DNA of 64,000 bases from contig LLEY01000241.1 of NCBI GenBank assembly GCA_001414485.1, positions 1-64,000 on the forward strand, read 5' to 3'. The position numbers and the translations under genes are program-made. A model generated the notes under the pieces. The model did not search any database. It was not told the origin of the DNA and worked only from the letters and a program-made list of their open reading frames with translations. Numbering within the stretch: the stretch's first letter is position 1; each line of letters opens with the position of its first letter. The stretch is from Calycina herbarum. Lineage: Eukaryota; Ascomycota; Leotiomycetes; Helotiales; Pezizellaceae. Positions 8,268-45,537 of this stretch are shown here, one piece after another.

Positions 8268-9638
8268 CTACTCATGAACAGGACGAAGTTCTATCATGTA
8301 TGGCTCTTTGACCCACAGACCGTAAGTTTTCTGTTCAACCCATGGAATCGTATGTCTCTCTTCCAGCTCCTTTGGGATGACTAGGTCAAAATTCCAGAGC
8401 AAGCGACTAAAGATCAGACGCATTTTTGCTTTTGCTAGTTGCTGAGCAATACAATTTCTCGGGCCCATACTGAAAGGTTGTAATGCGTTCACATTATCGT
8501 TCTTAAAGGTTTCGGAATCGAAAGCTGGGTCTGATGCTGTAGGAAGGAATAGAGGTGAGGCTGTGGGCAACCATCTTTCGGGAATGAAAGAAGAACAGTT
8601 GAAGTTGTCTCGGATCCAGCAATTACAAGTGTGCCGGCTGTAGCCTCGATTTCGGGCATTGTCATGGTATGTTTGAAATTGTTATTTGCAATGTAGGACA
8701 TGAAGTCCGAGCGGTCCGTAGTGAGTGCCAACCGCTTGTGCACCCATTCCACACTTCGACGAAAATGATATAGTCGCTCGTTGAATGCTGATTTTGGAAT
8801 GAAGAGCCACAGTAACTTGTCCAGGACAGGATAAAAGATGATACTTGCTAACAGGTTGGAGGCTTTCAGGCGAGCAAACAGAAATGCTACCCAGCGATGA
8901 TATCTTCCTTTTTCCAAGCATTCGAAGGATTGTCCAAAAGTTAAGTCTCCCTAATTTAAAACATCAGATTTAATTTTGCTCGTAAAAGGGATAGTTTGGG
9001 GAGTTTGAAACTTACTGTAATGTCGAATGTTGTAAAGTTATACCAATCCTTGAGATCTAGTCTGCCTCTCTGTCTCGCATTTTCGAGGAGTTGTCCAACA
9101 TATTTTTGCAGTATGGGTTCCTGCGATCTCACAGCAGCTGAAGAAAATGCATGGTTTAGAATCTTTCGCTGGCGAGTGTGGTCGTCTTCAAACGAATCCA
9201 GAATCGAGAAAACACCATTTGGGGCAGGTCTAATCCAAGCGGGGTTCTTCGTGAATTCGGAGTGTCCGCGACCACGGGCACCATAAATATCATGCCAGGC
9301 TTCGCTATCGATAAACGATAATTCGTCGGGTGCTAGTCGTACTACTGTCCCGTACTCTTCATAGATCCTCCAGGTATCTCGCACCAGATTTCCGGTTGCG
9401 AGAGAAATTGCGTACGACAGACGGGATATGGTCCATAACCAAGGCCCCGGGACTTTATTTAATGGATGAAGAAATAGGTTATAAGTACCACCCAGAATTG
9501 TGTACTATGTTTTGAAATTGTGGTATCAGCAATAATTTGAGGAATTACCATCAGGAAAGCCGCAACCACAGCAGCCGATACAAACAGAATCTCGCTTCCT
9601 TGAATCAGTTCAAACATAGTCGTTGATTTGGTTCCCAT
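8268..9638 (-). pseudogene. Cytochrome P450-A (CYP65-like), internally deleted
   Basis: Remains of a membrane-bound P450 monooxygenase resembling the fungal CYP65/isotrichodermin C-15 hydroxylase type. Minus-strand exons 9638-9549, 9504-9016 and 8950 onward are joined by introns of 44 and 65 nt. The N-terminal membrane segment, LHPLNKVPGPW, GARGRGH, DDHTRQRK(I)LNHAF, and the I-helix AGSETTST are all visible. Directly after STVLLS the sequence jumps to the PERW motif in a different frame (about 8582-8597). The J/K-helix segment, with the ExxR salt bridge, is therefore missing: roughly 90-100 residues in relatives. The heme loop reads FSMGPRNCIAQ, where the usual Gly after Cys-Ile is Ala. A functional P450 cannot be made from this locus. 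Confidence 0.85.
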
Positions 9639-9969
9639 TTTGAAATAATTGTTGTGTGGTATCACTGGAGTCCATGGGGATGATGGGAACATCCAAACCC
9701 GAGCGTCCTCGAAATTGTGTCATGTGATCTGCCCCCACCCCCATCATCGTGGGCGACTGCGTCGCGGATTGTGTTACCCTGTCTCACAAGGGCGAGACGC
9801 TGAAGAAATACATGGCAAGTAGAAACCAGGTGCATCAATTCCAACCGGGTAATATTTGCCAAACGGCAAATTAAATTTGAGCAGGACAAACACTCGAACT
9901 CAACATGGAACATCAGTCCATTGAAATTTTTAGTCAAAGTTGCTGGTACAAAAATTATGAAAGTGTGAA
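9639..9969. other. Intergenic between P450-A and P450-B
   Basis: Upstream region of P450-A and 3' flank of P450-B. A minus-strand frame (9662-9937) has no domain. Nothing else seen. Confidence 0.35.
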
Positions 9970-11713
9970 CTAGTAAGCGAGAGGGTTAGGCCTCTCCCTA
10001 ATTAAAATTCTGGCTTCTAGATCAGGGAAAAGATATTCATGAGCCGCAACATTCGAGGATCTGCCTTTTCCATCGGGAAACTTGAAATCATAGTTGACAA
10101 TCAGATGGGCAACAAGAATCTTGATCGTGTAGACTGCAAAGAATCTCCCAGGACATGAGTATTTACCGTGTCTAAAATGCATGTTGTCTTTGTGAGTTGT
10201 AGCAAACTGGTGTAGATTTCTTTGCCCGGGGTTTTGGCCTTCGCGATAATGTCGAAATCCATCAAATTTATGAGGATTGGGAGAGGCAGACGCAAGGGCG
10301 ATGGGAACCACGAATGACCATGTGAACATCTTTTGGCAACTTCGTGCCATCTGACAAATTGATAGTCTCCTGTGCTGCACGCTTGAAGCCAACTGCTTTT
10401 TATTAGCATCTGCAGCTCAAAGCGAGAAAGGTTACTCACTAAGATAAGACTGGGACGATTGAGTCTCTGCTACTCCTTCATAAAGCTATCTAGTTTCTTC
10501 ATCTTTGTAAGGGTGGTCTTTTTCCACCCGCCATATTCCATTAGTGTCTGCAATATTTCGTCTCGGAGGGCCTCCAGATACTCAGGTCTCGCGACGATAT
10601 CGTACAAGACTTGTGTCGCTGTCATTGAGGTTGTGTGCACAGATGCCAATGCGAGAACCAACAGGCGGTGTACCAACAATCCCGGCTGACCATCTCGTTC
10701 GTTCCAGGCTTCGTCCATCAGCCACTGAAGAAACTCGTTAGGCTTCTCGTATGATGAATTATGTGCTGCTTCCATCAATCTCCGTTCTTGAGCAATGGGC
10801 ACAACTAGCTCTTGGGCTATACGAAGGTTGCGTGAAACTTGCCAAGTTCCAGGAATAATGTAGGAAGTAATACGTTTCAAAAAACCAGGGATAATTCGCA
10901 TTTGAATTGCAACCTTGAATCCACTTTCTGGGAAGTTCCATTGCACTTCGAGCCAACGCTTATTCCGATACAAAGGGAGCACTGAACTTCTTGCAAAGTC
11001 GTGAACAACTAAGCGAACCATTGTGTCAAAGCCAAGGATGGATGCCCATTCATCTGTTGATTTTAAATCAGTAAAGTAATGATAAGTCACAGTGCATTAT
11101 TTTTTCATACCTTTGTATAGAGGTAACTCTTGTGTAAGGCCCCATTTTATTTCCTCGCATATCAACGGAATGAACATTCCCAATTTTGGAGTCAGTCTTG
11201 TTTGAATTGCATGTGTATGCAAGTTTCCACGTAAAAGAATATCGATCGTGTTGTAGTTTCCCTGAAAATTCTACACCAGTTTCAGTAAATTTTGTACAGT
11301 TTTGCGAAGTGTTGAAGCAAACTCACCTCAATATTTGCAATCATGGAGCTTAGCTTTTCTTCGGGTATAGCTCGAAGTTCGTTAACATATTTGTTAGGTA
11401 CAACTAGCATATCATTACCATTGGTTTTGAAAAAGCTATTTTTGTACTGAAAGGATATGTCAGTATTGTAGAAGAAACAAATGCTGTGAATAGTTCACGC
11501 CTTTTGATACCCGTCTTGAAGCAACTCTGTCGCACCCGTCAAGTATATAAGTCTCCTCAAGTAGGCCCACTTCGATCCGACGAATGGAGCATCAAATTCG
11601 GCATTTCCTTGTGGTTTGAAAGTGGAATGTAACCATCTTGCAGACAAGTATATCAATATGAAAGAAGATAACACATAAAAAGAAAGTAGGGAAATGATTT
11701 TCCGATGTTCCAA
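9970..11713 (-). pseudogene. Cytochrome P450-B (ent-kaurene oxidase-like), nonsense mutated
   Basis: P450 of the type found in fungal gibberellin/diterpenoid clusters. Five minus-strand exons can be joined (11713-11501, 11446-11327, 11261-11111, 11053-10440, 10392-9970). Visible parts are an N-terminal membrane segment, DGYQK|YKN, an I-helix LALASVHTTSMTA, the K-helix, PNPHKFDGFR, and the heme loop GKYSCPGRF. The K-helix ExxR reads KE-stop-QRLN, where the expected residue is replaced by TAG at 10472-10470. After intron 4 the open frame runs on, but the familiar sequence (NLSDGTKLPKD) is in the next frame, so two opposing frameshifts scramble about 30 residues. The first intron has a GC rather than GT donor (AAAAG|GCGTGA). 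It is divergent with the MFS gene. Confidence 0.8.
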
Positions 11714-12446
11714 TAGATGAACTGATTGATGTTGCGTTCCGAGTGTTGTTCATTTTGATGGCTTTCAAAAATGGAAAGTCTTGTTATCACAAAAATCTCA
11801 CACAAGAAAGGCAGCGAGGAAGGTATGGCATAGAGAACCAACACCCCGTTTGAATATTTAGGTGCAATCATAAGGTACGGATCATTCAAGAGGCTGACGA
11901 AATCCCTGCCATACAAACTATCAGCCTGGGAGTTTGCATCGCTTCGCCTTACGCTATGTTAAACCGGACTTATGATGTGACGGTGTGAGTGACACCAACT
12001 CGAAAGATACTGAAGATTCTGAATGCCAAGCTGCGATCGTAGTTGATGCATTTTGCATTCGACAGCGAGGACCGGAACTGCACTAGAGATATGCCGGCCG
12101 CCACCTTCCGGTTTGAGGTGACTTTTTCAGCGTTGCTATTCATATTTATGGAGCTAACACGGGCTGAATACCAAGGGTTGCAGTGGATCCAACATTGCCC
12201 CACTCAAGTCTTAAGCGAGCCCAGAACAGGGGCAGTGAGGTTCAGGAATTAGTGAAACACGGAAAAAGTGATGTTGGTGTTGGTGTGTCTTGCATACCAA
12301 AAAATCATATTATTAGCAACTCACGGCAAGTTCGTCTCAATTGCCGTGCAAGGGACTGAAAAGCAACAACCGCGAAGATAGGGAGTTTTGACGAAGCCCA
12401 AGTAAAACCGAGGAAGGAAAGAAATACCCATCCTGACGTCGCCGCA
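11714..12446. other. Divergent promoter region, P450-B / MFS transporter
   Basis: A 730-bp spacer between a leftward and a rightward gene of the same cluster, so it should hold both promoters. Open frames in it (11653-11916, 11970-12203, 12043-12252) overlap one another without domains. No specific factor site was identified. Confidence 0.45.
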
Positions 12447-14931
12447 ATGGCTGTAGAACACCCAAGTCAAATCGAGGTTGCTTCTGTGGGTGGGAGCGCC
12501 CCTTCCACAGAAGCGTGTGATAAAAAGAGCGAGAAGCAACAGGAAGCAACAGCCAACCCCATGGATGAAGAAAAATCAGGAAAAGTTGAGGCTGGAGAAA
12601 ACATGGGCTCAGAACCCACCACCACTCCGGCTCCGAAAGAACGCAAGATATTTGGTATCAAAGTAAGAAATTTTGGTTGCCTCTTTGGAATGAAGTCCGC
12701 GGCTAATGGAAACGTTATGTAACAGTGGATCTTGATCGTGCTGGCCATTTATTCCAATTTGCTCTTTTATGCAATTGATAATACGATTGTAGCAGTCATA
12801 CAACCAGTGAGTTAGTTCATCGGCATTTTCAAAGAATCACGAGGGAGACTTATTTTGCAGGTGATTGTTCGTCAATTCGGACACGTTCAAAACTTGCCAT
12901 GGATCTCAGTTGGGTAGGTATTTTCTTGTTTATTTTTGGGTTAGGTCAGCGTATCATACAGTTGCTGACCGAAAATTCATAAAAGTTTTCTCATGGCTGG
13001 AACCGCCACGGCCTTGATCAATGGAAAGTTGTTTGGAGCTTTCAACGCAAAGCACCTATATATCTCGGTATGATCGAGTAACAAGTTTAATTGGTTCTTG
13101 GATTTCTAACCCAATATCACACTAGTTCTCTCTCATTTTTCTCGTTGGCTCTGTGGTCTGTGGGGTGGCGAGAAACTTGCCAACCTTGATTGTTGGACGT
13201 GTTATCGGTGGTATTGGGGTAAGTTCACACAAAAACATTGTATTCTACTACGTCACAACTTGGCTAATTTCTTTATAAAGGGAACCGGAATGTATCTTGG
13301 TGCTTTAACATTAATCTCTGTGAATACTAGCGCGAAAGAAACCCCCGAGTATATGGGATACCTGTAGGACTTTTGCGCCCCGAATATTCTTCGATAATTA
13401 ATTCTGTATATAGTGCTCTAGTCTGGGGGTTCGGTTCTGTCATCGGGCCACTTATTGGTGGCGCTTTTGTTGAAAGCAAAGCCACTTGGAGATGGGTGAG
13501 CGTATCACCCTCTTGTTGGTTTAGCAAGTACTCACTATTTTGTAGGGTTTTTACATCAATGCTCCGGTCATTGGAGTATTTATTCCGATATATTTGTACC
13601 TTGTGCCCTCCTACAACCCACAACTCAGTTCCGGAATCTCTTCCAAAATACTTCAAATTGACTGGATGGGAGCTCTGCTGAGCTCTACGGCATTCGTCGC
13701 AGGCATCATGTCTATCAACTATGGAGGTACACTATACGACTGGAACAGTGGTCGAATAATTGCTCTATTCGTCGTCTCTGGGAGTTATTTCTTGGCATTA
13801 TTTCTTCAGCAGTATTATTGTGTTAAGACTACTCGTGCACTTAGAGTTCTTCCAATCCATTTGTTGATGGTTAAAGATATGATATTGTGCTTCGTATGTC
13901 AAGGTATGAATGTATATCGATGAATATTGCTTCGCCGTTAATTTTTCTAGTTGCTGTTGCAATAATCGTTCCAGTGCCTTTGTACTATCTACCTATTTTT
14001 TTTCAGTTCGCGAAGGTATGTAAATTCCTGGAATAACGGGAGGAGGAAATATCATGATATCCGTTCAAAATACTGACATGAAAAGGGGGATTCGGCATTG
14101 AGAGCTGGCATCAAAACACTCCCGTTGATTGCGACTTGGGTAACGTCAAGTGCCTTTAGAGGGAAGATGATGGGCAAACTGGGCTGGTACCAACCATGGT
14201 ATATTGTTGGGAGTATTTTGAATATTTTGGCTGGAGTTTTTCTATGCACGTGCTTCCTTACATTTCTTTTCTTTCTTCTGAAACCGTTCTTTGAAAATAA
14301 TACTAACGGACCAAAAACAAAAAACAGCGCGTGTTACTATCGATACACCAAACGAGGTAATCTATGGCCTTGAAATTTTGTCCGGAATTGGCACTGGGTG
14401 TTATGGGCAGGCTGGCTTCGCCGTAGCGCAGCAACTCGTCCCTCCTACTGATATTCACCGCAGCATCTCCTTGATGCTAATTGGTAAGCTTCTAAATCTT
14501 AAATACGAAAGAAATATTGACTCTAGCGTTTCAGCTCAGCTTACCGGGACCACTCTCGGGTTAGCACTCGCAGGTGCAATTTTTCAAAACTTTTCTCTCA
14601 CACACATTCGAGCAATACTGCCTGGTCTATCTACTGCACAACTCAGTCGTATCATAACAGATGCAGCGAGCATATCTGAAATCGGAATTGATGAAGGCCA
14701 ACGGATTCGAGTTTTACATTCGCTTGCCATTGCTTCGGCTAACACGTATGATTACCGGAAAACACTCATTTTTCTGTTTCCGTTCTGACTGTTTGACAGA
14801 TACATTTTGATTTACGCGGCAGCGGGGTTTTCCCTTGTTTGCTCAATGCTTTTCACTGTAAGTTAATGCAAATCCCCGTTTGGTAATAAGTACGCTAACA
14901 TCAAAATGTCCAGCCTCGCAAACTCTGGTAA
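12447..14931 (+). CDS. MFS transporter (DHA14-type), probable frameshift in exon 11
   Basis: Major facilitator efflux pump of the 14-helix drug/toxin type, probably once exporting the cluster product. Fourteen exons were placed: 12447-12662, 12726-12806, 12861-12913, 12986-13067, 13126-13218, 13281-13363, 13414-13495, 13546-13903, 13951-14015, 14086-14249, 14328-14483, 14535-14745, 14800-14857 and 14914-14931. They give about 572 residues. Visible are a hydrophilic 70-residue N-terminus, FYAIDNTIVA, GRVIGGIGGTG, WGFGSVIGPLIGGAF (motif C), KATWRW and GLALAGAIFQN. All junctions keep frame except exon 10 to 11, where the acceptor cag|cgcgtg is one base out of phase. This is consistent with loss of CG from a CGCGCG run near 14328. 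If real, the last four helices are lost; a missed splice site is the alternative. Confidence 0.8.
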
Positions 14932-15174
14932 GATCAAGCAAGCATGGGTTAGGTTTTGGCTGCAGAGATTGGACATGCTGTCGTATCTCTCAGATAATCT
15001 TAATACCAAAATGGTTGAATCGGTAGCTCGTTCTTCAAAATAAATAAGATGTTTGTCGCCGGAAGGGTTCGCACACATGGCCGATCGAGGAATACATGAA
15101 TCAAAGGTGGAATGAATACAACGCTTCTCAACGAAAGTTTTCCTCTGATATTTGTTGCTAAGCCTACTCTAAGC

Positions 15175-16977
15175 CTACGCAATATGTCTCTTCAACGTGA
15201 TCTTTTGCAATGCGCTCACTTGATTCTTCTCCCCCATTATCACGTTTGCAGGTCTCTCGGTTTGACCATCCGGAAAATTAATCTCGAACTCTAGTAACAG
15301 CACCATTAACAACAATTTGATCTGGGCACTAACCCAGAAACGACCAGGGCAAGCAAATTTCCCGACACCCGAAGAAGGAATTTCGGCACTCAAGGAAGCG
15401 AACTGATGCCTCTCTTCCTGTCCCTTTTCCTGTCGCAATTTGAAGAAACGGAGACCATCAAATATCTCGGGGTCGTGCATCATAGGGTAATGTGTCATGG
15501 AAATATATGTTGATGCAGGGAGGATGACCCCATTAGACAGTTGAAGTGGGACGGCAAGTCGTCGATTAAAAGTCACTAATTTTGTAGTGTAGTTAGCAGT
15601 TGTAACAGGACATGAAAGTAAGTATGTGTTAGTCTAACGTACTCAGTCCCGCAGTATTGAGGCGGTTATACTCCTTAATAAAGCTGTCGGTCTTTCTTAA
15701 ACTAGTAGGTGTTGCTAGTTTAATGCCACCATGTGCTGTTATTGCTTCAACTATCTCTTCTCTCAACATCGTTATATACTTAGGTCTAACACAAAGATCC
15801 AAGATGACATTGGTAGCTGCTTCTGCGCTTGTGTGAATTGCTGCCATGTTGAGAAATAGCATTCGTTTCACGATTTGATCTGTCTCTGAGTCATGCCCTT
15901 GCGCCGTGTCGATCAACCATTGCAACATGTCACCATGTTTCTGTCCGTCATCGGCAGAACCATTCACAGATTTTGCAGAGCTACTTTTGGTGAGTGTGGA
16001 GCGATTCTCAAACCGTGGAAGTAATAGTCTCCGAGCTACTACAAAACGGGCGCGAATCTGGCGAACCGAGGATAAAAAGGGGGCGACGATTGGATGAAAG
16101 ATGCGGTAGAGAGTTTTCAGGTCATTCATTACATTAGACACGCTTATTGAGTACTAGTTAGCCTGCTCCTGTTAGAATCCGATAGGTGGTTTTCATACTC
16201 CATAGTACATATATCCTGTTGCTGTGGCCAACCAATCCGGATCTCGGCAAAGATCTGAACCCACAAAAACACAGGCGGTAGCACTTGTAATGTTTTCAAT
16301 CACTGGCAAAAACGCGGGTAAGGATTACAAATCTTAGACAGGAATATGTTAGCGGTGATACTGTATTAAAATTCAAGTCTTGGGTATTTACTTACCATTT
16401 TTACTCCCGACCTTTTCAAGCTTTCGATTCAAGGTTAAGAGGATTTCGTCAAACACCGGTTGAGCGAGGCGACCTGATATCTCGAAAGATCAATATTTTC
16501 AAAGAGGGTGGGGGCAGTTACTCTGATATTACTCACCTATGTTTTGAGACAGTTGGCTGGCGCAAACCACGAATTGGAAATCGCCTTGTTCGACGATGTC
16601 CATCCCAGTGTACTCTCCGGCATGTCTTATTGTGGCAGTTAATTGTAGCTCTGAGCGAGATAGAGAGCTAAAATACTTCATGAAATTTCTCGATACAATG
16701 ACCCGATCCATGTCCGTAGTCCAAAGTGAATATAAACCATCTTTATACTGATTCTGTCAGCTGATATAGTTTTCACGTGATATAGCAAGCTGTGACCCAC
16801 CCCAAGCTAGAGACTGTGACTATAGAAATGACTTTTTGTTGTGTTTCCTAGTAAACCTGGCTTTGGTCCAATTCGAGGAATACCCACGACTTTTTGCTGC
16901 CAAAAAACACGCCGGGAGAGCAAGCTCCAGAGGATGAAAGCGCCAACAAACAAACTGAAGAAAACGGAGGCAATCAT
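15175..16977 (-). pseudogene. Cytochrome P450-C (CYP68-like), probably defective
   Basis: P450 related to those of gibberellin clusters. Minus-strand pieces are: an N-terminal exon from 16977 (MIASVFF...GPKPGLLGN); 16747-16537 (YKDGLYSLWT through VVCASQLSQNIG); 16473-16396; about 16303-16199; 16153-15643; and 15575-15175. The I-helix AAIHTSAEAATN, ExxR as KEYNRLN and the heme loop GKFACPGRFW are all intact. After the first exon the frame meets TAG (SHSL-stop). The 20-30 residues normally leading to GYQK are absent before YKDG, which suggests a deletion. Between the third and fourth pieces one acceptor choice gives a TAA, another does not. Defective status is therefore likely but less certain than for P450-A and B. 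Confidence 0.7.
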
Positions 16978-17430
16978 CTTCAACAGAAGCTGTGTCAGAC
17001 AGGTTCAATTCCTTCTCTCTTCGGAAACGGAACTCAATTGTGTTGGTTGCGATGAATGAAGGCCACGCGTGGATGAGATTCATTACGGGACGTGTTGGTG
17101 TTTTGTGGCATTCTAGAAACACCAGGTTCCAAGCAAGGGTGTTGTCAACGGATCATCATACTTTTGCCCAAAAGAACTTCCAACAGGATTTCTGCAGGCA
17201 ATTGTTATTGATTACGAGTGGGCAAGTACCTCGAAGGGTGTTTCGAAGGGGAAGTTCGCGACGAAGTGAAGTCATTTCAATCTTCAGAAAAGCATTCTTT
17301 GGCGCCCAACCTCCCAAGTGGGGTTACAATGTGGGGCATTTCTAGAGGGGGGCGGGCGTGTACATATATGTTGGAAGGCTGGCCCAACTAGAGAAGTCCT
17401 TGAAAAATCACTCACATGTTGGATAATATA
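16978..17430. other. Intergenic, upstream of P450-C
   Basis: Divergent spacer between P450-C (leftward) and the remnant at 17431. A plus-strand frame (16992-17345) has no domain. Nothing else seen. Confidence 0.35.
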
Positions 17431-17910
17431 ATGTCGAAGATGGGCAACCCTTGTTCGCGGAGGTACAGCGACTATGATATGCCTATCAACGAACCAACAG
17501 GTATGCTCTGGGAGTCCTGGAACTGCAAGCTCTCATTTAACAGATTCATCTACGCATAGAAATTGAACCAACACTGAAGATACCTGCATAATCTCTGTTA
17601 AATCATGGCCCCAGGAAGAGATCAGCACTGTCTGGGAGCGAATGGAGATATACGATATCGGACATCCTGCCGCTGAAGAACACAAGTCCTGGGGTCACTA
17701 TGTAAGGTAACTGCGTGAACTTTTACGTTCGTGAGTTCCAGTCTATGTTACCGAGGCCTTGAGTGATCTATTGATAGATTTCATGTGCTAGAAGACATCA
17801 TCGAGCTTGACAAGCAGTCCTTTTTGCCACATGATATTTTCGGTAACCATGTTGATATTTTTACCGTATATATCACCATTATGGTTGTTTTTTCATTACT
17901 ACTTCCTTAA
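17431..17910 (+). pseudogene. Unrecognised gene remnant before the diterpene synthase
   Basis: Three pieces can be joined with plausible introns (17492-17541, about 17707-17777). They start MSKMGNPCSRRYSDYD and run through SWPQEEISTVWERMEIYD, then GHYVR|FHVLEDIIELDK. An in-frame TGA interrupts it just after the first intron (THRN-stop). Amino-acid composition and splice signals look like real coding sequence, but I do not recognise the family. It is not the GGPP synthase expected in such clusters, as no DDxxD motif is visible. It could be the eroded remainder of another cluster enzyme. Confidence 0.35.
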
Positions 17911-18044
17911 TTTGCTTCAATCTTCACATAATAAGGATTTATTCTCTAGCACCGCAAATAAAAGTCCAACCTACATCTATTTTCCATTTCTCCAGACGAG
18001 CATTTTTCAAAGTTCAAACCGTCACGGGAGATACTAGAGCGAAA

Positions 18045-21000
18045 ATGAACCCCTTTGAGCAACAAGCACGTCTTCTCATCTGTCGTTTGTCGAATGAGTC
18101 TGTTTGATCATGCGGAAACGGTTCCATGTCACCGCCTATCTACGACACTGTTTGGGTGTCAATTATCTCACGAACAACCACACATGGTACATATTGGGTT
18201 TTCCGGAATGCTTCCAGTATATACTCAATACTCAGCAGCCAGATGGGAGTTGGCAATCATATAATTCACAGGTGGACGGAATTATGAATACCGCAGCTTC
18301 GCTTCTCGCTCTGATGAAGCATTCTTCGATCCCTTTGGAGAAGGAGAAAGGCCACTTTCCTACGAAGAACTACTCTCGCCTCACTTTGGCGACGGAAAGC
18401 CTTAAAAAACTACTTTCCTCATGGGATGTGTCTACTTTCAATCATGTTGAGTTTGAGATTCTGGTTCCATCACTTCTAGCGCTGCTCGAAGATCATGGTA
18501 TCAAGTTTGATTTTCCTGGAAGAAACCACCTTATTACGGAATGGAGAACAGGCGATAGGCTCATCGATCATAAGTTTTCAGTTACAGATCACCTAAGCAC
18601 TTTAAGAACCACCGCTATCGAGCTATTCTCTACGTTTTCATATGCCTATTACTCTCAAGCTCCTCCCTCTAGCTAGCTACCTATTCTCTCTTTCAAGAAA
18701 TTCTCTATATTTACTACTCCCTACCTTATCGGTTTAGGAGGAAGAAGGGAGACGGGAGAGGGGTTAGGGCTAGACGTCTTATAACTACTATACTAATTTA
18801 GATATTTTATATAACCTTTCTTATATTTCCTCTCTAATTTAGGAAAGGCGCCCGCTTTAAGCTAGGCGTAAAAGCCCTATATAATCTCCTGCTTTTATAA
18901 TCGCGATTACTCCTTCTTCTTCTTTTCCGAAACTATAGTAAGGTAGCGAGGTAGCGTAGAAGCGTAGAAGATTAGGAGCCTAGGAGCTAGACCTTAAGAG
19001 AGTATAAGTATAGAGAAGCAGAGAAGCGTGTTTGTAAAGAGCGAAAGCAAAGTCCCTCCTAATAAAAGATTTATAATTAAAAACTTATAATCGATGAGCC
19101 TATCGCCTATTCTCCATTCCATACCTTATACAACTTAACCAACAAAAGTTGCGTAAATTCAAACCCGAGTGGATTTATGGCTCTGCAAATACTGCTCTGC
19201 ACTCTTTAGAAGCTTTTGTGGGAAAGATCGATTTCGATAAAGTCATCTCCCGTAAAACTAATGGGAGCTTGATGGCATCACCGGCTTCTACAGCGGCCTA
19301 CTTGATGAATTGTACTGTTTGGGATTACGAGTCCGAGAGCTATTTGAGGAGTGCTATAAGCGAAGGATCTGGTAAAGGGAATGGCAGCATTCCGTGTGCC
19401 TTTCCAACTACCTTTTTCGAAGTGACTTGGGTAAGTTTTTTTGCACAGTTCTTGACACGAAATATTGCTAAGTCAATTCCAGGTGGTTCCAGCCCTTTTG
19501 AAAGCCGGGTTCACAACTCAATGTTTGGGAAAATATAACTTGAGCATTCTGCAAGGAATCCTTGAAGCGGGTCTTACACCCAGCAATGTGATAAGTTTTG
19601 GTAGGAATATCAGCGATACCCAATGCTAAGAGGCATATACTAAAATTTCTCAGCGCCGTTGTTACTTCTAGATGCTGATGATACTGCCAAAGTGATACTC
19701 ACAACCTCCCTTCTTGGAAAGAATTTCAGTCCTGATCAGATGATTGCCACGTTTGAGCTTGAAACCCACTTTCAAACGTATGCTCATCAGAGGACTGCCA
19801 GCTTCAGCACGAACTGCAATGTTTTGAATGCACTTCTACATCTTCCTAGTGTCAATCAATATATCAATCAGGTGGAAAAAACCGTACTTTTTCTCTGTAA
19901 GTGTTGGGCAACAGGAGACATAGGCGACAAATGGGTAACATTTTCAGGCAATCCCTTGCCGTGAAAATACATTCTGACCTTTTGAGTATAGAATCTTTCC
20001 ATATATTACCCAATGATGCTTCTGGCCCAAACGTTCCGACCGCTTCTTGTTCTTTGGGACCAAGGACAAGTTTCGGGTCTAAAAGAAGAGAGACTACGTC
20101 ATCAAACACCTCTCGTACTCCTTCAAATTCTTCATCGGACACTACATTGGCAGAATTCCGATAGATCATGGGGGCAAGGAAACAAGTGCGAAGTAACAGC
20201 ATATGCTGTGCTTACACTTGTCGACACTTCAGGCCTCTCGTTGTTTGCAGGGTTGGTTGAGAACCTCAAGACTAGCTTACAAGCTGGCCTACGATTTCTA
20301 GAGCAATCGCGTTCAACATGGGAAGAGCCAAATTACACATGGATTAAAAAAGTTACATACAGCTCTAACGTACTTTCTGCCACGTATTGCTTGGCAGCAT
20401 GCTATGCGGCAACCACTTTGCTGGAGTCCCTACACTATGGCTGGAAATCGTCAACAAAAGAATTGGTGGGTGTCCCCGAGCCGAAATTAGAAGGACTGTG
20501 TCGTTTTTTCTCGAAGATACCATTATTTAGAGACCAGCCCCCTTGGAAGCTCCATGCTTCACTCATGGAAGCTTTTATTTTTCTGCCCCGTCTCCAAAAA
20601 GCCCGCCTGGAGATATTTCCCAGAATAGATATGGCCAAAGATGAATATCTTGAGTATATTCCTTTTACATGGACCAGCTGCAATAACATAGGGGCTTTCC
20701 TCGAACTGGACCTATTGTGGGACATGATGGTAATATCAGTGTTGAACTATCAGGCAGATGAGTTCATGGAATCTGTTGTTGGCACCCACTTCTCCGGGGA
20801 ACTAGAACTTGCAGAAGATCTGATCAAATCTATATTCGCGAGACCAAAAAGTAGCCTAGTGGCCCCAGACAAAGAGAGGCTATTGCCTAGCCCACCGCTC
20901 TCGGAAAAATCTTCTAGCGACAACATCTGCGTTAGTGGTGCCGAAATCGTGAGAAAACCTTTGGAGAAATTTGTCCGCTTCATTCTCGACCACGAAAGAA

Positions 21001-21632
21001 TTCAAAACGCATCGACATTTATGCTTCACCATCTCACCAAGCAACTAAAATATTTCCTTCTAGCACACCTTAAACAATGCGTCGACAATGCGGCATTATC
21101 CGACCAGCAGCAGAGGTCCAACAATGGCACTTTTGGTTCCTCGCTTAGCCACTGGGCCTGGATCCACACCATTTCAGCAACGCACACCTCATGTCCATAC
21201 TCATGGGAATGGATACAATGTCGTATCACCACTGAAGAAGATATTCCTTTCACCACAGCAACTGCCGAGTATTTATCTTCCGAGCTCGCTGCGCACCTCT
21301 CGGCAATGTGTCGGATGTACAACGATTTTGGCTCGATCTCTCGTGATAAAGAGGAAGGCAACTTGAACAGCATCAACTTTCTTGAATTTGGGACGAGTGT
21401 ACTAGGGTGCTTGTCGGGGAATCCGAAAGAAGTTGGTATACTCAAGTTAGAAGGGAAAAAGGCAAAACTTTTCGCCATCGCGGAATATGAACGAGCGAAC
21501 GTGGTTGATTTGCAAACTCGCTTACTACCGCTTGTAAGCAGTCGTACTCAAGGCATGCTCAAGCTATTTGCTGATACCGATTTATACGGACAAATGTATG
21601 TAGCACGAGATATTGCAAGCAGGATGAAGTAA
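18045..21632 (+). pseudogene. Bifunctional diterpene synthase (CPS/KS-type), disrupted
   Basis: Fungal copalyl diphosphate synthase/kaurene synthase-type enzyme. The family turns GGPP into a labdane diphosphate (class II site) and then a polycyclic diterpene (class I site). Class II motif DADDTA is at 19671-19688, the class I acidic motif DEFME at 20757-20771, and the NDFGSISRDKE metal-binding motif at about 21321. Introns are 19431-19482, 19601-19653 and 19935-19991; the last exon is 19992-21632. From PDGSW to the stop the sequence reads well once a 589-bp transposon (18535-19123) is ignored. Upstream, TGA at 18105-18107 follows NESV, and one T appears lost near 18200 (YDTVWVSII in one frame, PECFQYIL in the next). 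Three independent lesions make it a pseudogene. The product (kaurene or another skeleton) cannot be told by eye. Confidence 0.9.
18535..19123. mobile_element. MITE-like DNA element inside the diterpene synthase
   Basis: A 589-bp insertion with terminal inverted repeats of about 50-55 bp. The left end is TACGGAATGGAGAACAGGCG...; the right end is the reverse complement with C-to-T changes, ending ...CTCCATTCCATA. It is flanked by the 6-bp direct repeat CCTTAT (18529-18534 and 19124-19129). Removing the element and one CCTTAT restores an unbroken frame (RNHLIQLNQQ then KLRKFKPEW). The interior is AT-rich with no transposase, so it is non-autonomous. Superfamily not determined. Confidence 0.85.
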
Positions 21633-35720: not shown

Positions 35721-36245
35721 CTGATAACAATAGGGATCTATTACTCGAAGAATATCACGATATACGGTTAGAAATGGATTACGAATTACCTCTTTAAGTA
35801 GAATATAAATCACTACTATTAACAAGTTTATTAGAGTCATCGGAGTTAGGATCTGACTTATCGGAGGTAAATCCTAGAATATATAAACCTAAAGAAGGAG
35901 AAACATAGGCATTTATCAGAACCTTTAAGAGAGGGAATAGATAGGTATATATAGAAGGACAGAAACCTGATTTCTAGAGCCTATATTCTACTTAAGAAGT
36001 TAATCCTACTATCTTAACTATCTATAAGATAGTAAGAAATAACTAAGATCGAGTAACCATAGTTAGCTCTATTAATAGGAAGGAAACTATTAAGTTTAAG
36101 GAGCTAGGACTAGAACAAACGATACTAAACGACTACCTAGAGAAGAGAGATCTGTGGATAGTTACTAATTTAAGAAATAATACTACTAAATAGTAGTAGT
36201 ATTACCTAAAAGGATTCGATAAATACAACGGATATTCAAAGTCGG

Positions 36246-36691
36246 TGTAACGAAACTCAAACGAACTAAACAAAGATAACTAAGTCTCGAAGGTTGGTAT
36301 ATAAGTAAGAAGTATAGATGCGCCGGGTTGTTTACTTAGAAGTAAACTCGTTACTTATATTAAAGATGTTAAATAAGATAATAAGATTAATAACTGAAGT
36401 TAAGTACGAAGCTTCTATCTAATAGTAGACGTGCTAGTATATATATAATCTTCTATACTACCTAGATCCCTATATAAGCCTAGATCCCTAGATCCCTTTA
36501 GATCTCTTAAGAGATCTAAGGGGATCTATTACGTAACTACTAACGGTTATCTAATAGTGAGATTCTAAAATACCTAAATACCTTTATATTACTAATTCCC
36601 TTCTATATTACCTTCTATTTCCTGAATATCGTGCCTTATCTTATTAAAGCGCTATCTAGACTACTTATTATATATAACGTGATTTATAATA
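36246..36691 (-). repeat. LTR-2 3' LTR (446 bp)
   Basis: On the plus strand it begins TGTAACGAAACTC and ends GATTTATAATA. It pairs with 43072-43517. A GATCCCTATATAAGCCTAGATCC block in its middle is also found in the LTRs of LTR-4. Confidence 0.85.
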
Positions 36692-36959
36692 CTATCCTCT
36701 TCTTAGCCTAGTATATCCTTATACTTAAGTATAAGCTAAGAAACTCGGTTAAGGTACTAGTAGCATCCTTTCCTTTCTATTATGTCCTACTCTATATAAA
36801 AGAAGAAAGAAGAATAAATACTTCTTATAAAAAATATTAAAATAGTTTATAATAAAATATTACTATATTCTCGCTATACTTCCTAAAAGCGTAGGTGTTT
36901 TATTAACACCTCCTAATCTTTCTAATATTCTAAATATATTTATTTAAAGTTGAAATATA

Positions 36960-37333
36960 ATAGAACCGACGATACTTAGGAGAAGAACGTTCCTTATACT
37001 AGTAACTGGTCCTCTATCGAAAGACAAGAGGAGAAGCTAGATAGGGAGGAGGAGGAGGCAATAGCGAAGATTCTACAGTTATAAAAGCAGAAGGCCTTTC
37101 TTAAAGAAAGGTAACGTAAAATGTCCTATTAAGGACTTCGTTTTCTTGATAAACTCGACGTTACTAAGAAGGTAGAAAAGAAAGAGAAGAAGGAGAAAGA
37201 AAGAGAGGAATAAAAGCAGCGGGAGGCGGAGGTTACCTGTCTAACAGCCCTGCCTATTCCTACTAATTCTTAATCCGAGATAGTCCTTAACCTAGCCTTC
37301 CTTACTGCTTTCTCTTTAGACTATAAAATGTAG
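36960..37333 (+). pseudogene. Antisense Lys/Glu-rich ORF of LTR-2
   Basis: Lies between the end of pol and the 3' LTR on the strand opposite to pol. It reads RQEEKLDREEEEAIAKIL, KQKAFLKER, GLRFLDKLD, then a KEKK-rich run, EAEVTCLTALPIP, LNLAFLTAFSLDYKM and stop, with a few RIP stops. It is collinear with the LTR-1 and LTR-4 versions. Confidence 0.55.
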
Positions 37334-40300
37334 GTAAACTTAGGTTTTCCTAATAGAACTTCTAAAGTTCTACTAGGTAATAGTTAAGATTACTTTTTAA
37401 CTCCTAAGTGTTTTCTAAATATAGGTAATCTAACTATTTAATTAGATACTTAATCTTTCCTCTAATAATCCTATAGTTAAGAATTCTTTCGACTTTATAT
37501 TTAGTATTTAGATCAACTAGTTAAATTTCTATAAATAGGGCTAGTAGTGCTCCTAGTAGTGCTAGTTTAAGTAGAGATATATAAAATACTAGGTAAATGT
37601 TTATTATCTTTAATAATACTAATTTATAATTCAAAGGTCTCTTAACTCGTTTGATTTTAAATAATCTAAGTTTTTTATAATCTAGTTTATTACTTAGTCT
37701 TTTTATATTAATGTTTTTTTATATTAAGTAGACTTTATCCTCCTCTTTTAGCGTTAGCTCCTAACTACGTCGTTTGTTATAGTAGTACGTGTTTCTTTCT
37801 ATAATAAACTATAAATCTTTTATAAGTTTCTTATATAACCTCTTAATTTTTAAGACCTAAATATAAACAAGCTAGTTATTAATAGTCGTAGATAGTAGTT
37901 CTTAATATACTAATAATTTATATCTAAAGTTAATATAGAATAGTATAATAAGTATTATTTCTATTACTAAACTATTATAGGTAAACTATACTAAGGGCAG
38001 TAGTTCTACCTAGTTGTTTTACTAGTAGTTTATATAATAATAAAGGTATATTTCTACTACTTAGTTTATACGTTTATTTCCTCTATTTATTTAAGAGTGA
38101 AAAGCTATTAAAAGCTTTCTTTTTACACCTAATTGTTCTATAAGAGCGATCTAAAATTTTAAAGTAAAGAGTTTATCTCTATCTAAGAGTATTTTTTTAG
38201 ATAGTTTATATCTTAAGACTACTTCCTTAAAGAATGTAAATACTAATTCCTTAGCTATACTTAACTCTATATATACTACTAGAATTATATATTTCGTAAG
38301 TCGTTCTATAATAACTAGGATTAAGTTATACTTAACTCCTATTATTAGATCTTTAGATTTTAGTAATTTAATAATAAAATCTATAGATATTAATTTCTAA
38401 GGTATTTATAGTATTAGAGTAGTATTTATCTATCTATAAGGAGTATAGTAGGAAGCCTTATTCCTAGTATAGGTATTATACTCTACTATCACTTCCTTAA
38501 CTATTATAGATAACCGATTAATATAGTAGTATTATCTTATTCTCTAAAGGGTTCTACGAATTCCTTAGTAGCTATAAGTAGGTATAGTATAGTATTCTTA
38601 TATAAATTCCTTTATATATAAGCTAAGAACCTATAATTTCCCTTTTATATATTAGTTATAACCTTTATATATATTCTAAATTTTATCTATCTAAATATCG
38701 TTTATTACTATAATTTTATATATAGTAGATACTAAGTCTCTATTCTTAAGAGTTTTTAAGATTATAATCTTCTTATACTCTTTATTTCTCTTATATCTGG
38801 GTTTTTAGCTAAGAGTATTAGCTCGAGTATTTAACGTTCTCTTTATATATTAAATAATAATATTAAACCCTTCTAATATCTCTAACTATCTAGCTAATTA
38901 TCTAGTTATAAGTTCCTTAGTTATTATAAATATCCTAAGATTCTTATAATTAGATAGGACTATAACTAAGTATTTTACTAGCTATAAATAAATTCTCTAG
39001 TATTCTAAAGCTAATACTATAGTAAGCAACTCTTTATTGAATATACTATAGTTTTATTATACTAGGTTAAATATTTTAGAATAATATATAATAAGTATAA
39101 GTTTTCTCTTTTTATTTAGTTATAAGTAAATCGTACCTACTAATATATTTAAGGTATCTATTTTAATTATACTTAGTTTTTCTATATTAAAGTCGTATAG
39201 AATAGGTTTTTCTATAAACCTTACTTTAATCTTTTAAAAAGCGTCTTTAGCCTATTTATTTTAAATAAATTTAATAGCTTTCTTAACTAATATTATTATT
39301 AGTTTAGTAATCTTTATATAGTCTTATATAAATAGATAATAAAAGTTTATAAATCTAAAGAAGAACTATATATCTTTTATATTTTCTAGTAATTTCTAGT
39401 TTAAGATATTTTAAATCTTTACTAGATCTATTTCTATTTTCTCTAAGCTAAATACCTATTCTAGGAAAAGTGTCTAAGTTACTCTAAACTCGTATTTCAA
39501 GAGTTTTAACTAAGAGTTTACTTTTATAAGTTATTATAAAACTTCTCTAATATATCTCTTATATTATTCTTCTTTTTCTAAGAAGATTAAGATATTATTT
39601 AAGTAATAAATTACTATTACTCTTAAAAGATCTCTTAAAATGTTATTATTTTATCTCTAATATATAGCTAGTATATTATAAAGTTTAAATAGTATAACTA
39701 TATATTTATAAAGGCTTAATAGTAAGGTAAATACTATCTTCTATTTATCTCTAGTTTTTATTTATATAAGTCTATAAACGTTTTATTAATCTAATTTCGT
39801 AAATTATACTACCTTACTTAACTTATCCTATAAGTATTAGCTAGGTAGTAATAGATAAGCGTCCTTAACTATAGTATAATTTACTTCCTAATAATTAATA
39901 TATACTCTCTTATCTAGGTCGTCTTTCTTCTTAATAATAAGTATATTTAAGGTAATTAGTAACTTAGATCTTCTAATATATCCCTTTTTAATACCTTTCT
40001 TTATATAACTCTCTATTCTCTATAGGCTTTTCTAGTTATATAACTGAAGCTTCTACTTTAAGAAGTAATAACCCTCTTTTAATTTAATCTTATAATCCTA
40101 TAAGCGATGTTCTAGCAAAGCTTATAAGTCTTCTAGGTTTTTAAACAAAGCCTTAAATTCTCTATACTATATAGGTATTTCGTTATTAGCTTTCTTACTA
40201 ACCTATAGAAGACCCTAGATAAGGTGTCCTAGTACTTTAGAAGAGGTGGCGCTAACCTTATTCTAGCTTTAAAGTTATAAACGCAAACTCTTATATTTAT

Positions 40301-43071
40301 ATCGACTAAAAGTTATCTTCCTAGCTTTCTAGTCGATTTCTAGATTATATTCCTAAATCTATAGTATACTAAGTATTACTTCCTTACTTCTTATTTTAAT
40401 AATATCGAATTATATATCTAAATAGTGTCTTTTAATATTAATTTCTATTAGAATAGTTTACTAATTAATAATTCTATTTTAATATATAATATCTATTCTA
40501 TCGACTACTCCTAGTTAATATAGTCTTATCTCTTTAATTAGAACGTTCCGCTTCTCTCGAGCTATTAGGGAAATAAAGTTACCTATTACTCCTAAGTCTA
40601 TTATAACTCGTAACTTCTTCCCTCTTATTTCTATAGTTACTACTAACTGTCTTTCTCCTAAAGTAGCGTCTAACTTTACTTTAATATATTAGACTTCGAA
40701 AGATCGATTTTCTCGATTATAATTCCTTCTCTCCTCGTTCTTATACTATAGAAAGAATCTTACTTTTTCCTTATTAGTATATACTACCTCGTATACTAAT
40801 CTATATTCTAGGATTCCTATTATCCTAGGAATTCCTCTTATAAATCGTTTTAGTATTTATCTATAATTATATTAGACCTATTTATAACTGGTTTCTATAA
40901 TAGCTTTTATAGACTATAGCTCTCCTATATATAGATAATCTAAAGTAGCCTCTAGTATACTTATCTCTAGTTTTATATAGTAAACCTTAAATATATAGTC
41001 TCTTAAATTCTTTTCTCTAATAGCCTAAATCTAGGACTAAGGAAAGAATACTACTCCTTCTTCATTTAATAATACTACTTCGTATATCTAATAATATTCT
41101 ACTATTCTAATAGGTTCTAGTAATATTCCTTTGAACCGTTTCTATAATAACTAGTCTAAGGTCAGACTTAGTTTATATTATATCTATTATACTATTGTTT
41201 TCTAAACTGTTTCTATAAACTATAGTTCTCTTATTAATAGGTAGTATAATTCTTCTAGTTCTGTTTTAGCCTATCTAGTTATATTAAGCTCTCTTTACTC
41301 TTAAAATAGTATACTAAATAGTTATTATAAGTTATATTTTCTAAATACTAGCCTATTATTTCTAATTAATATAACTATAATATATTACTTAAACTTCTTT
41401 AGTATAACATCTTTAGATAGTGTTTTAAGGAAAGAGTTTTTAATTTATCTTTTAAATCCTATTAGAACTTACTATATCTATATACTATTCTTATCTAAAA
41501 TATTATATACCTTTTATACGTCTCTAACCTCGGGATAAATAAGTCTCTTAATTCGTAGTTAGTTATATATAGGTTCTTTATCCTTAATAGTTTTTTACTT
41601 AGTAATTAGGCTAACTAAAGTTATTATCTTAGGGTTATTTCTTATAACTATATATATTATTAAAATAGTTAGGTTAACTCCCTATATAGTATAAGGACTC
41701 TAGAAGTCTGGTTTCTAATTATCGATATATATCTATCGATTTCCTTATTTAAAGGTTCTAAGGAAAGCCTAAGTTTCTCTAACTTCGAGGTCTTCCTTTC
41801 TTATTTCTCTTTCTAAACTAGAAGATAAATCCGATGTCTCTGAAGAACTAGTTAATAGTAGTAATTTATATTCTACTTAAAGAGGTTACTTAGATTCTAT
41901 TACTGATTATATATTATAATATTCTTTAAGAAGTAGATCTCTATTATTATTAGTATCTTATATACTACTAATTCCTTTATTATTTTTAATCTAGGTTCTA
42001 TATTCTTATGTCTTAAGCTTCTTATTTATAAGTTTAATATAATTAGTTAAGGCTACCTATTATTAAATAGTAGTATTAATTTGTTTCTTTCTCTTAGAGT
42101 CTTTCTTCTTACTATACTTATTTGCTTTATAACCTAGAAGGCTATAATTATAATATAAGTTCTACTTACGTCGATGATTTTACTTCTTCTAGGAAAGTCC
42201 TTCTTTCTTTAGAAAGGTTTTCTTTTATATAGCGTTTACCTTCTTACTATATCTATTAGTATAAGAGTGCTTCTACTTCTCTAACCCTTTTCTCTTTTCC
42301 TTATATCTAAGGTTACTTTTCCTAAATTTATATAAGTAGTTGTCTAGCTAGACGACTTCTTTAATTATACCTGTAATAGTTAAGAATTATATATTTTACT
42401 TAGCTATTTCCTTATAGATATATATCTTTAAACCTCTACAAAAGAGTTCTATAAGAGCGATAGTATCCTATCTTAACTTTGTTCTATAACGTTAGAATTT
42501 ATTAGTATAATCTATTACTAATCTAGTCTAGTATAATTCTAAAAGCTTATATATAGCTGTTTAGATTATATTAAAGTCTTTAAAGACTTTTCTAATAGTT
42601 GCTTTAAATCTTCTCTAAGATTTAAATATAATCTTAGTTAATTCTATCTTTCTATCTTTATTCTTATTCTTAAAGAAGTTCTCTAAGTATAGCTAGGCCT
42701 ATTCTAATACTAATCTCCTAAGATAGGAGATAGTAAAGATAGTTTATAAATTATAATTGCCTTTAAACTTATTAGAGTTAAAGTTAAAGTAGATGTCTAT
42801 CTAAAGAAGGAACGAGTCAAGTTTCTTTTGCTTCTTATAATACGTATCTAGTATCTTAACTTTAATAGATTTAAGTGCTTCGACCTTATAGAGCTCGAGG
42901 GCGTCCGGTATACTAATATTATCGTCGTTCCTAGTTAACTATGTACTAGCAGGTGTTCTTCTAGTCGTACTTCTAGATGTTCTTATAACGTTAACTTAAC
43001 TAGTATTTAGACTAGCTGCTACGGGGGTTGCTAGGGCTATAGCGACTGAACTTCTAAGTAGGTGCTTAAAG

Positions 43072-43517
43072 TATAACGAAACTTAAATAAACTAAATAAA
43101 GATAACTAAGTCTCGAAGGTTAGTATATAAGTAAGAAGTATAGATATACTAGGTTGTTTACTTAGAAGTAAACTCGTTACTTATATCAAAGATATTAAAT
43201 AAGATAATAAGATTAATAACTAAAGTTGAGTATAAAGCTCCTATCTAATAGCAGACGTGCTAGTATATATATAATCTTCTATACTACCTAGATCTCTATA
43301 TAAGCCTAGATCCCTAGATCTCTTTAGATCTCTTAAGAGATCTAAGGAGATCTATTACGTAACTACTAACAGTTATCTAATAGTGAGATCCTGAAATACC
43401 TAAATGCCTTTATATTACTGATTCCCTTCTATATTACCTTCTATTTCCTAAATATCGTACCTTATCCTATTAGAGCGCCGTCTAGACTACTTATTATATA
43501 TAACGTGATTTATAACA
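43072..43517 (-). repeat. LTR-2 5' LTR (446 bp)
   Basis: Same length as its partner, ending ...GATTTATAACA next to the GTCGG duplication. Confidence 0.85.
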
Positions 43518-43599
43518 GTCGGATATAACTACCTACCTACCTAGTCAAGACTATAAACTAGAAATTAACGAGAAATATTAGGTGTTAAAGGTTGAAAAA

Positions 43600-44880
43600 G
43601 GAATTATAATAGTATTTAAAGGATTAGAGGATCAACGAATATTCGGAGTTACTAAGGTAGACCTCTAGACCGACCTAATCTAGGAATTCTACTAATCTAT
43701 AAAAGATGAACAGTAGACTACTAAGACATTAGGAATAAGGCTTCCCGCTATACTCCTTATAGACAGATAAACACTACTCTAATACTATAGATACCTTAGA
43801 AATTAATATCTATAGATTTTATTATTAAATTACTAAAATCTAAAGATCCGATAACAAGAGTTAAGTATAACACGATCCTAGTTATTATAGAACAACTTAC
43901 GAAATATATAATTCTAATAGTATATATAGAGTTAAGTATAGCTGAGGAATTAGTATTTATATTCCTTAAAGAAGTAGTCTTAAGATATAGACTATCTAAA
44001 GAAATACTCTTAAATAGAGATAAACTCTTTACCTCGAAATTTTAGATTACTCTTATAAAACGATTAAGTATAAAAAGAAAGCTTTTAATAGCTTTTTACT
44101 CTTAAATAAATAGAGGAAACGAATAGATAAATTAAGTAGTTAAAATATACCTTTGTTATTACGTAAACTACTAGTAAGACAACTAGGTAGAACTACTACT
44201 CTTAGCACAGTTTACCTATAATAGTTTAGTAATAGAAATAATACTTATTACGCTATTCTACACTAACTTTAGATATAAATTATTAGTATATCAAGAGCTA
44301 CTATCTATAACTATCGATAACCAGCTTACTCGTATTTAAGTCTCAAAAATTAAGAGGTTATATAAGAAACTTATAGAAGATTTACAGTTTATTATAAAAA
44401 GAAACATATACTACTATAACAAACGACGTAGTTAGAAGCTAACGCTAAAAGAGAGAGATAAAGTCTACTTAGTACAAAAAAATATTAATATAAAAAGACT
44501 AAGTAATAAACTAGATTATAAAAAACTTAGACTATTTAAAATTAAACAAGTTAAAAGACCTTTAAATTATAAATTAGTATTACTAAAGATAATAAACATC
44601 TATCTAATATTCTATATATCCTTACTTAAACTAGTACTACTAGGAGCACCACTAGCTCTATTTATAGAAATTCAACTAGTTAATCTAAACACTAAATATA
44701 AAGTTAAAAGGATTCTTAACTATAAAATTATTAGAGGAAAGATTAAGTATCTAATTAAATAGTTAGATTACCTATACTTAGAAAACACTTAAGAACCTAG
44801 AAAAAACATTAACTAGTACTCGGAGGAACTTTAAGACTTCTACTATCGAAATCTAAGGTTGCCTATATTAGGTGATTAAT
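43600..44880 (+). pseudogene. Integrase/chromodomain relic of LTR-1
   Basis: Reading across stops gives ISIDFIIKL, VIIEQLTKY, LNRDKLFTSKF and AFYS.IN.GNE, the order of a gypsy integrase core. It continues with AQFTYNS and a C-terminal module ILNYKIIRGKIKYLIK.LDY. The catalytic Asp of SDRD is Asn, as expected from RIP. Confidence 0.7.
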
Positions 44881-45200
44881 AGAGAAGACCTCGAGGAAAC
44901 TAGGATCAAGACCTAGGTCGAAAGCAGGGTTAGAAGCAGTAGGGGTAGAGTAGGTAGCCAGCCTAGTAGCCTCCTCTCTCTTTTTCTTCTCTTCTTTTTC
45001 TTTTTCCTCCTTCTTCTTAGCCTTATCTAGCTCCTGAAGAGTACTAAGTCCTCGACAAAGCATCTGTTATTCTCGCTTATTAAGAAGACGTTACTATACT
45101 CGAAGATAGAGAACCTTTAATATTGCTTCCTACTAGACTCGAAAGGCTTTTTCTTAGGCCTAATAGGCTGTCTCTTCCTCGACCCGTAGACGACGTTTCT
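44863..45200 (-). pseudogene. Antisense Lys/Glu-rich ORF of LTR-1
   Basis: Antisense to pol and overlapping its stop tail to tail. The intact part (45063-44863) reads MLCRGLSTLQELDKAKKKEE..., then TRLATYSTPTASNPAFDLGLDPSFLEVFSINHL. The frame continues upstream through one stop (FLNKRE). The same protein is recognisable in LTR-2 and LTR-4. Coiled coil likely; function unknown. Confidence 0.55.
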
Positions 45201-45537
45201 ATATATTAAGAGATTCCTATTTAAAAGTTAAGAGTATTCGATTTTACTTCTTAATATTATAAGTTTTACTCTTCCTAGTATACTTAGAACATTTCTTACC
45301 CTCGGTAATAGATATATATCGACGGCCAGACATAGAGGTAAGACAGCGAGTATAAGAGGATATTTCAGATCCTACTCGATTAATATAAAGAGCGTTATTA
45401 ATACGATTTTGTTTTAGTTTATCTTTTGTAGATAGTATTATTAAAAACATTATAGTAAGAGAAGGCCGCTAGCTTTCTAACAATATTTCTTAGGTTATAC
45501 TTAAGCGTAGGAACACGCTAGGCTAAGAAGGGAATAG

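What the first reader, a model, noticed from the sequence alone, without database searches (positions are those of the whole stretch)
8268..21632. A dead diterpenoid gene cluster
A CPS/KS-type diterpene synthase, three P450s (two of gibberellin-cluster type) and an MFS pump lie together, which is a classic diterpenoid cluster. At least four of the five genes carry lesions of different kinds: transposon insertion, nonsense codons, frameshifts and a deletion. The motifs for both cyclisation steps (DADDTA and DEFME) survive. No GGPP synthase is seen. Sister species may hold the working cluster with an unknown product.
Basis: partly seen in the sequence, partly recalled or inferred. Interest (0 to 1): 0.75.

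Follow-up and report, generated by a model that had tools for sequence, protein, structure and literature searches.

The report
Decayed fungal diterpenoid gene cluster
A stretch of a fungal genome holds the broken remains of a gene set for making a diterpene-type natural product, and related fungi carry close relatives of two of its genes, so this looks like an ordinary case of a lost chemical pathway.

Summary
Window 8,268-21,632 carries a bifunctional-type diterpene synthase (DTS), three P450s and an MFS pump. The DTS and all three P450s are broken. The DTS has a nonsense codon, a frameshift and a 588-bp inverted-repeat insert, all in the first sixth of its coding sequence. P450-1 lost about 97 codons with a frame change. 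P450-2 has a nonsense codon and frameshifts. P450-3 has two nonsense codons and a damaged exon 1. The MFS gene is open except for one unresolved junction. No PF00348 match lies on this contig. Relatives: P450-1 and P450-2 are 76-80% identical to full-length proteins of Lachnellula suecica and Botrytis; P450-1 is 84-85% identical to a metagenome contig that also appears to encode the DTS's sister. The same genome keeps an older paralogous cluster on C347 without visible lesions. So it is a dead member of a known kind; gibberellin identity is not shown. Two surprises: the 3' part of the DTS shows little decay, and the DTS is far more diverged from relatives (48-54%) than the P450s.

The parts
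8268..9638 (-). P450-1 pseudogene; about 97 codons (I-helix end to PERF region, with the ExxR motif; region names recalled) missing at 8585-8594, frame changed
   Evidence: Pfam; tblastn with P0147 and P0146; relatives P0146, P0147, P0179
9970..11760 (-). P450-2 pseudogene; no in-frame start seen, non-canonical exon 1 donor, nonsense at 10470-10472, frameshift at 10311-10313
   Evidence: relatives P0121, P0122
12447..14931 (+). MFS transporter gene, about 14 exons by hand, open apart from one out-of-phase junction between exons 10 and 11 (14249/14328)
   Evidence: no close relative found in the own genome, so the junction is unresolved
15172..17000 (-). P450-3 pseudogene; nonsense at 16807-16809 (exon 1) and 16325-16327 (exon 4), exon 1 end and donor not recognisable, six-codon gap before the heme loop
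18045..21632 (+). CPS/KS-type diterpene synthase pseudogene; nonsense at 18105-18107, frameshift at about 18200-18212, insert; open from 19123 to the stop with introns 19431-19482, 19601-19653, 19935-19991
18535..19122 (.). 588-bp element with terminal inverted repeats (44-53 bases, 89-93% alike), flanked by the 7-bp repeat ACCTTAT (18528-18534 and 19123-19129); non-autonomous transposon inferred
   Evidence: 12 further partial matches elsewhere in the genome, which used 18600-19140 as query
19671..19688 (+). DADDTA, class II (protonation) motif (role recalled)
20757..20771 (+). DEFME, class I (ionisation) motif (role recalled)

Best explanation
This is a pseudogenised diterpenoid biosynthetic cluster. 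Its ancestor would have had a bifunctional cyclase (class II protonation, then class I ionisation of geranylgeranyl diphosphate taken from primary metabolism), three P450s that oxidised the hydrocarbon, and an MFS pump that exported it (roles follow from the families). Loss of function is inferred from independent breaks in four of five genes, which are shown; the order of the breaks and the product are unknown. The breaks are young compared with the divergence of the genes: the remaining codons still look much like those of relatives.
For: Gene content. Breaks of four kinds in four genes. Relatives: P450-1 79% L. suecica, 80% B. deweyae, 84-85% metagenome contig; P450-2 77% L. suecica, 76% B. 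aclada, 71% over the 207 shared columns of a short B. tulipae model. Recent loss: P450-1 end branch 0.14 against 0.091-0.13 in three relatives; P450-2 0.21 against paths of about 0.15-0.25 in its four sisters; DTS exon breaks 1 of 68 columns conserved at 95%, family median 1, and 0 of 17 at 99%. P450-3 against its C317 relative: 94, 60, 72 and 75% of residues shared in exons 2, 3, 5 and 6 with synonymous sites saturated, so selection acted for most of the time since they parted. No RIP signature in the genes (TA/AT 0.55-0.81 against 1.61 in the insert).
Against: No RNA or proteomics. The MFS gene and the 3' part of the DTS are open, which fits recent loss but also partial retention. At 90% conservation the DTS exon has lost 6 of 96 columns against a median of 3 (rank 15 of 66), so it is not wholly unmarked. 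The P450-3 exon 4 stop could be skipped by a later acceptor at the cost of about nine residues. Assembly error is not fully excluded; only the P450-2 stop has a second record.
Confidence: 0.88

Rival explanations
1. The P450s are dead but the synthase lives on as a shortened class I enzyme. Translation would start after the insert (in-frame ATG at 19272) and give 732 residues that contain DADDTA and DEFME and a complete class I domain; it would need copalyl diphosphate from another cyclase of the same genome.
For: All three DTS breaks lie in the first 490 coding bases and none in the next 2,348 (0.005 if three breaks fell at random; counted after the fact). The open part keeps the family's conserved columns (1 of 68 lost, median 1; 0 of 17 at 99%). 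Other cyclase loci exist in the genome.
Against: No promoter or transcript evidence was sought or found. Young decay gives the same picture. At 90% the exon has lost 6 of 96 columns against a median of 3, rank 15 of 66.
Confidence: 0.06
2. Some or all breaks are assembly or sequencing errors in a working cluster.
For: Nonsense codons and one-base shifts are typical errors of poor assemblies (general knowledge).
Against: A 588-bp element with a flanking repeat and a deletion of about 97 codons are not such errors. P450-2 ends at the same residue in a second record. The P450-1' and P450-2' exons on C347 in the same assembly read without breaks.
Confidence: 0.03
3. It is a decayed gibberellin cluster.
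For: Bifunctional CPS/KS-type cyclase and P450s; P0133, a hit of P450-2 at 68% over 45% of the query, is named ent-kaurene oxidase by its source.
Against: No PF00348 match on the contig, three P450s instead of four, no desaturase recognised; the nearest named relatives lie in Botrytis and Lachnellula with no known product, and PMC9920419 calls the B. cinerea diterpene cyclases uncharacterised (passages seen).
Confidence: 0.05

Closest known systems
Diterpenoid gene sets of unknown product in Botrytis and Lachnellula suecica
   Same: P450-1 and P450-2 76-80% identical to the full-length models; in B. tulipae the DTS and P450-2 locus tags are 00160 and 00200 on one contig
   Different: DTS class I exon only 48% identical to Botrytis; no L. 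suecica DTS is named among the 120 listed hits; complete gene content of those clusters was not seen
Paralogous cluster on C347 of the same genome
   Same: DTS, a P1-type and a P2-type P450 plus two more P450s in about 19 kb
   Different: 51, 48 and 48% identical for P450-1, P450-2 and DTS; no lesion seen in the exons read, though start codons were not all assigned and the output was cut; no MFS match in the 40 kb; part of an aldo-keto reductase instead (named from recall)
Gibberellin cluster of Fusarium fujikuroi and its remnants in other fusaria
   Same: Cyclase plus P450s; pseudogenes and remnants of the cluster are described in PMC3694855 (passages seen)
   Different: No GGPP synthase, no desaturase recognised, three P450s here
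Diterpene cluster 25 of B. cinerea B05.10 and B. fabae G12
   Same: Five genes with a diterpene cyclase, entered as '1 trunc' and 'DTC + 2 trunc' in Table 3 of PMC10971195 (passages seen)
   Different: Whether it is the orthologue could not be checked; gene ids were not seen

Membership tests
Fungal bifunctional CPS/KS diterpene synthases | DxDD class II motif | tested here: met
   DADDTA 19671-19688
Fungal bifunctional CPS/KS diterpene synthases | Class I metal-binding motif | tested here: met
   DEFME 20757-20771 and NDFGSISRDKEE 21321-21356, (motif roles recalled)
Fungal bifunctional CPS/KS diterpene synthases | Sequence kinship | tested here: met
   Sister of P0002 with 100/99 support in a clade of 17 rows whose five named rows are Botrytis, Stromatinia and Sclerotinia
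Gibberellin cluster | GGPP synthase in the cluster | tested here: not met
   PF00348: 6 matches on 5 contigs, none on C159; gene list of the cluster from PMC4617483
Gibberellin cluster | Four P450s | tested here: not met
   Three P450s recognised in the stretch
Gibberellin cluster | Desaturase | tested here: inconclusive
   Pfam scans of selected open pieces found none; no desaturase sequence was used as a query
Gibberellin cluster | Kinship to the characterised gibberellin P450s | not tested
   No protein named as such among the 25 hits or the 120 listed hits; one is named ent-kaurene oxidase
Pseudogene cluster | Disabling lesions against relatives | tested here: met
   Four of five genes
Pseudogene cluster | No functional transcript or product | not testable with these tools
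   No RNA or metabolite data

The most novel reading that the evidence does not exclude
The cluster changed its cyclase while keeping its P450s. Against Botrytis, P450-1 and P450-2 are 76-80% identical (71% to a short B. tulipae model) but the DTS class I exon is 48%, as distant as the old C347 paralogue, whose P450s are also about 50%. Against the metagenome contig, P450-1 is 84-85% but the DTS 54%. So either the synthase was exchanged, more than once, or it evolved several times faster than its tailoring enzymes, which would mean new skeletons fed to conserved P450s, with this lineage then abandoning the pathway.
Probability: 0.3. Interest if true: 0.5.

Novelty: new member of a known kind. 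Interest (0 to 1): 0.3.

Why it matters
Loss of secondary-metabolite clusters is well documented, so one more dead cluster is ordinary. The useful parts are that close relatives of two of its genes can be named (Lachnellula suecica, Botrytis, a metagenome contig), that the host keeps an older paralogue, and that the cyclase and the P450s show very different divergence, which can be tested with public assemblies. I found no product for this gene set in the papers searched.

Tried and rejected
Missing GGPP synthase as a sign of decay: rejected, C347 has no PF00348 match either. RIP as the cause of the stops: not supported by dinucleotide ratios. Frameshifts in the MFS gene: most apparent breaks are consensus introns; one junction stays open. 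C347 P450c as the counterpart of P450-3: replaced, C317 is far closer (73% against 38% for P450c and 35% for P450-2'), and that copy carries a stop by its heme loop. A topological conflict between DTS and P450 trees: in the 70-row tree the window DTS stood outside Botrytis plus C347, but in a 25-row tree it grouped with Botrytis and others at 79/70, and holding C347 with Botrytis was not rejected, p 0.18, whereas holding C347 with Botrytis and Lachnellula was rejected for both P450s; so only the difference in divergence is claimed. The 70-row tree used 65 of the 119 external hits listed plus the window and four own-genome paralogues; one of 71 rows was dropped for coverage. An open piece at 17606-17847 has no Pfam match and no second copy in the genome. 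dN/dS against other species was impossible (no relatives' DNA). One segment (ex4b) was misframed, so it and the pooled line are not used; a D3 comparison with C347 was misaligned and one translation printed there was out of frame; neither is used. Rfam gave no match in the window. Literature; a Botrytis cluster paper that I recalled is not held. All papers were seen as listings, abstract starts or passages only.
Full report
What is there. Between 8,268 and 21,632 lie three P450 genes on the minus strand, an MFS gene and a diterpene synthase on the plus strand. P450 identity comes from Pfam hits to exon pieces, MFS from PF07690 at E 1.9e-24 on joined open exons, and the synthase from PDB copalyl diphosphate synthases and 365 database proteins, the window's own included, 120 listed. 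DADDTA, DEFME and an NSE-like stretch are present.

The breaks. tblastn with relatives shows the synthase in frame 3 with one stop (18105-18107), then frame 2 from about 18,200, then frame 3 again from 19,122. Relatives are continuous where the window carries 588 extra bases. That insert has terminal inverted repeats that match at 89-93% over 44-53 bases and a 7-bp flanking repeat; diverged partial copies exist elsewhere (14 rows, one the query itself and one its own inverted repeat). P450-1 jumps from residue 307 to 405 of the Lachnellula protein across a few bases, with a change of frame, and so lacks the ExxR motif. P450-2 stops at 10470-10472, inside the ExxR motif, and changes frame at 10311-10313; its exon 1 has no in-frame start that I can see and a non-canonical donor. 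P450-3 was judged against C317:290163-290621, its closest relative in the genome (73%): it has stops in exons 1 and 4, no recognisable end of exon 1, and a six-codon gap. The exon 4 stop could be skipped by a later splice acceptor at the cost of about nine residues. The MFS gene reads through about 14 exons with consensus introns, but exons 10 and 11 are out of phase with the splice sites I can see; without a close relative this stays open.

Age of the loss. P450-1 has an end branch of 0.14 against 0.091, 0.11 and 0.13 in its three closest relatives; P450-2 has 0.21, against summed paths of about 0.15-0.25 for its four sisters. The open synthase exon has lost 1 of 68 columns conserved at 95% (median of 66 rows 1) and 0 of 17 at 99%, but 6 of 96 at 90% (median 3, rank 15); four divergent rows of 70 were left out before this count. 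P450-3 and its C317 relative share 94, 60, 72 and 75% of residues in exons 2, 3, 5 and 6 while synonymous sites are saturated, so selection held both for long and both breaks are late by comparison. Dinucleotide ratios show no RIP in the genes, unlike in the insert and the AT-rich islands.

Relatives. P450-1 is 79-80% identical to proteins of L. suecica and B. deweyae and 84-85% to pieces from a metagenome contig; P450-2 is 77% and 76% identical to L. suecica and B. aclada, and 71% to a short B. tulipae model. Contig lengths in the hit tables pair P450-1 with P450-2 in L. suecica, Lepidopterella and Pseudovirgaria, P450-2 with the synthase in B. tulipae, and P450-1 with the synthase in the metagenome contig (the two metagenome P450 entries stand for 7 and 5 contigs, of which the longest has that length). 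This is inference, since the contigs could not be opened. In the same genome, C347:467-486k holds a synthase, a P1-type and a P2-type P450 and two more P450s, 48-51% identical for DTS, P450-1 and P450-2, with no lesion in the exons read; start codons were not all assigned and the output was cut. The genome has five further synthase matches (C347, C246, C44, two on C98) and a fragmented one on C344.

Uneven divergence. Window against Botrytis: P450s 76-80% (71% for the short model), synthase class I exon 48%, a 101-residue part nearer the N-terminus 66-67%. Window against C347: P450s 48-51%, synthase 48%, that part 62%. Botrytis against C347: P450s 49-54%, synthase 53%, that part 61-62%. So the window synthase is nearly as far from the Botrytis one as the old paralogue is, while the P450s are not. 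Tree topology does not settle this for the synthase but does place C347 outside for the P450s. This is the one feature that I would follow up.

Known or new. Decayed diterpenoid clusters are known: gibberellin cluster remnants in Fusarium (PMC3694855, passages) and a diterpene cluster with truncated genes in B. cinerea and B. fabae (PMC10971195, Table 3 passages). Only 19 of 56 fungal di-TPS regions carried a putative GGPP synthase (PMC4617483, passages). The gibberellin label fails on two tested features and is untested on kinship. The finding is real, and ordinary in kind.

Noticed in passing
C344:109049-110123 (L008, L034, L035): A second broken diterpene synthase in the same genome: three neighbouring matches that abut but change frame, one with a stop.
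   Followed up: partly
C317:289.3-291.1 kb (L042, L043): A P450-3 relative; no DTS, P450-1 or MFS piece matched the 40 kb fetched around it. It carries a stop just after its heme-binding loop, so both copies of this P450 are broken.
   Followed up: yes
window 36000-52000 and 54000-57000: Stretches with RIP-like dinucleotide ratios (TA/AT 1.54-1.86; GC 0.26-0.27 in 36-46 kb and 54-57 kb, 0.40 in 46-52 kb), probably mutated transposons.
   Followed up: no
window 17606-17847: Two short open pieces with a plausible intron between P450-3 and the synthase; no Pfam family and no other copy in the genome. May be a remnant of a sixth gene.
   Followed up: partly
window 19992-21629 and 10473-11096: A second database record on a 32,239-bp contig encodes the same synthase exon and the same P450-2 exon with the same end (P0001, P0123), though C159 is 74,986 bp long.
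   Followed up: partly
database proteins P0134 and P0137: P450-2 relatives of B. fragariae and B. cinerea are short (245 and 265 aa), which hints at repeated loss of this gene in Botrytis, or at poor gene models.
   Followed up: no
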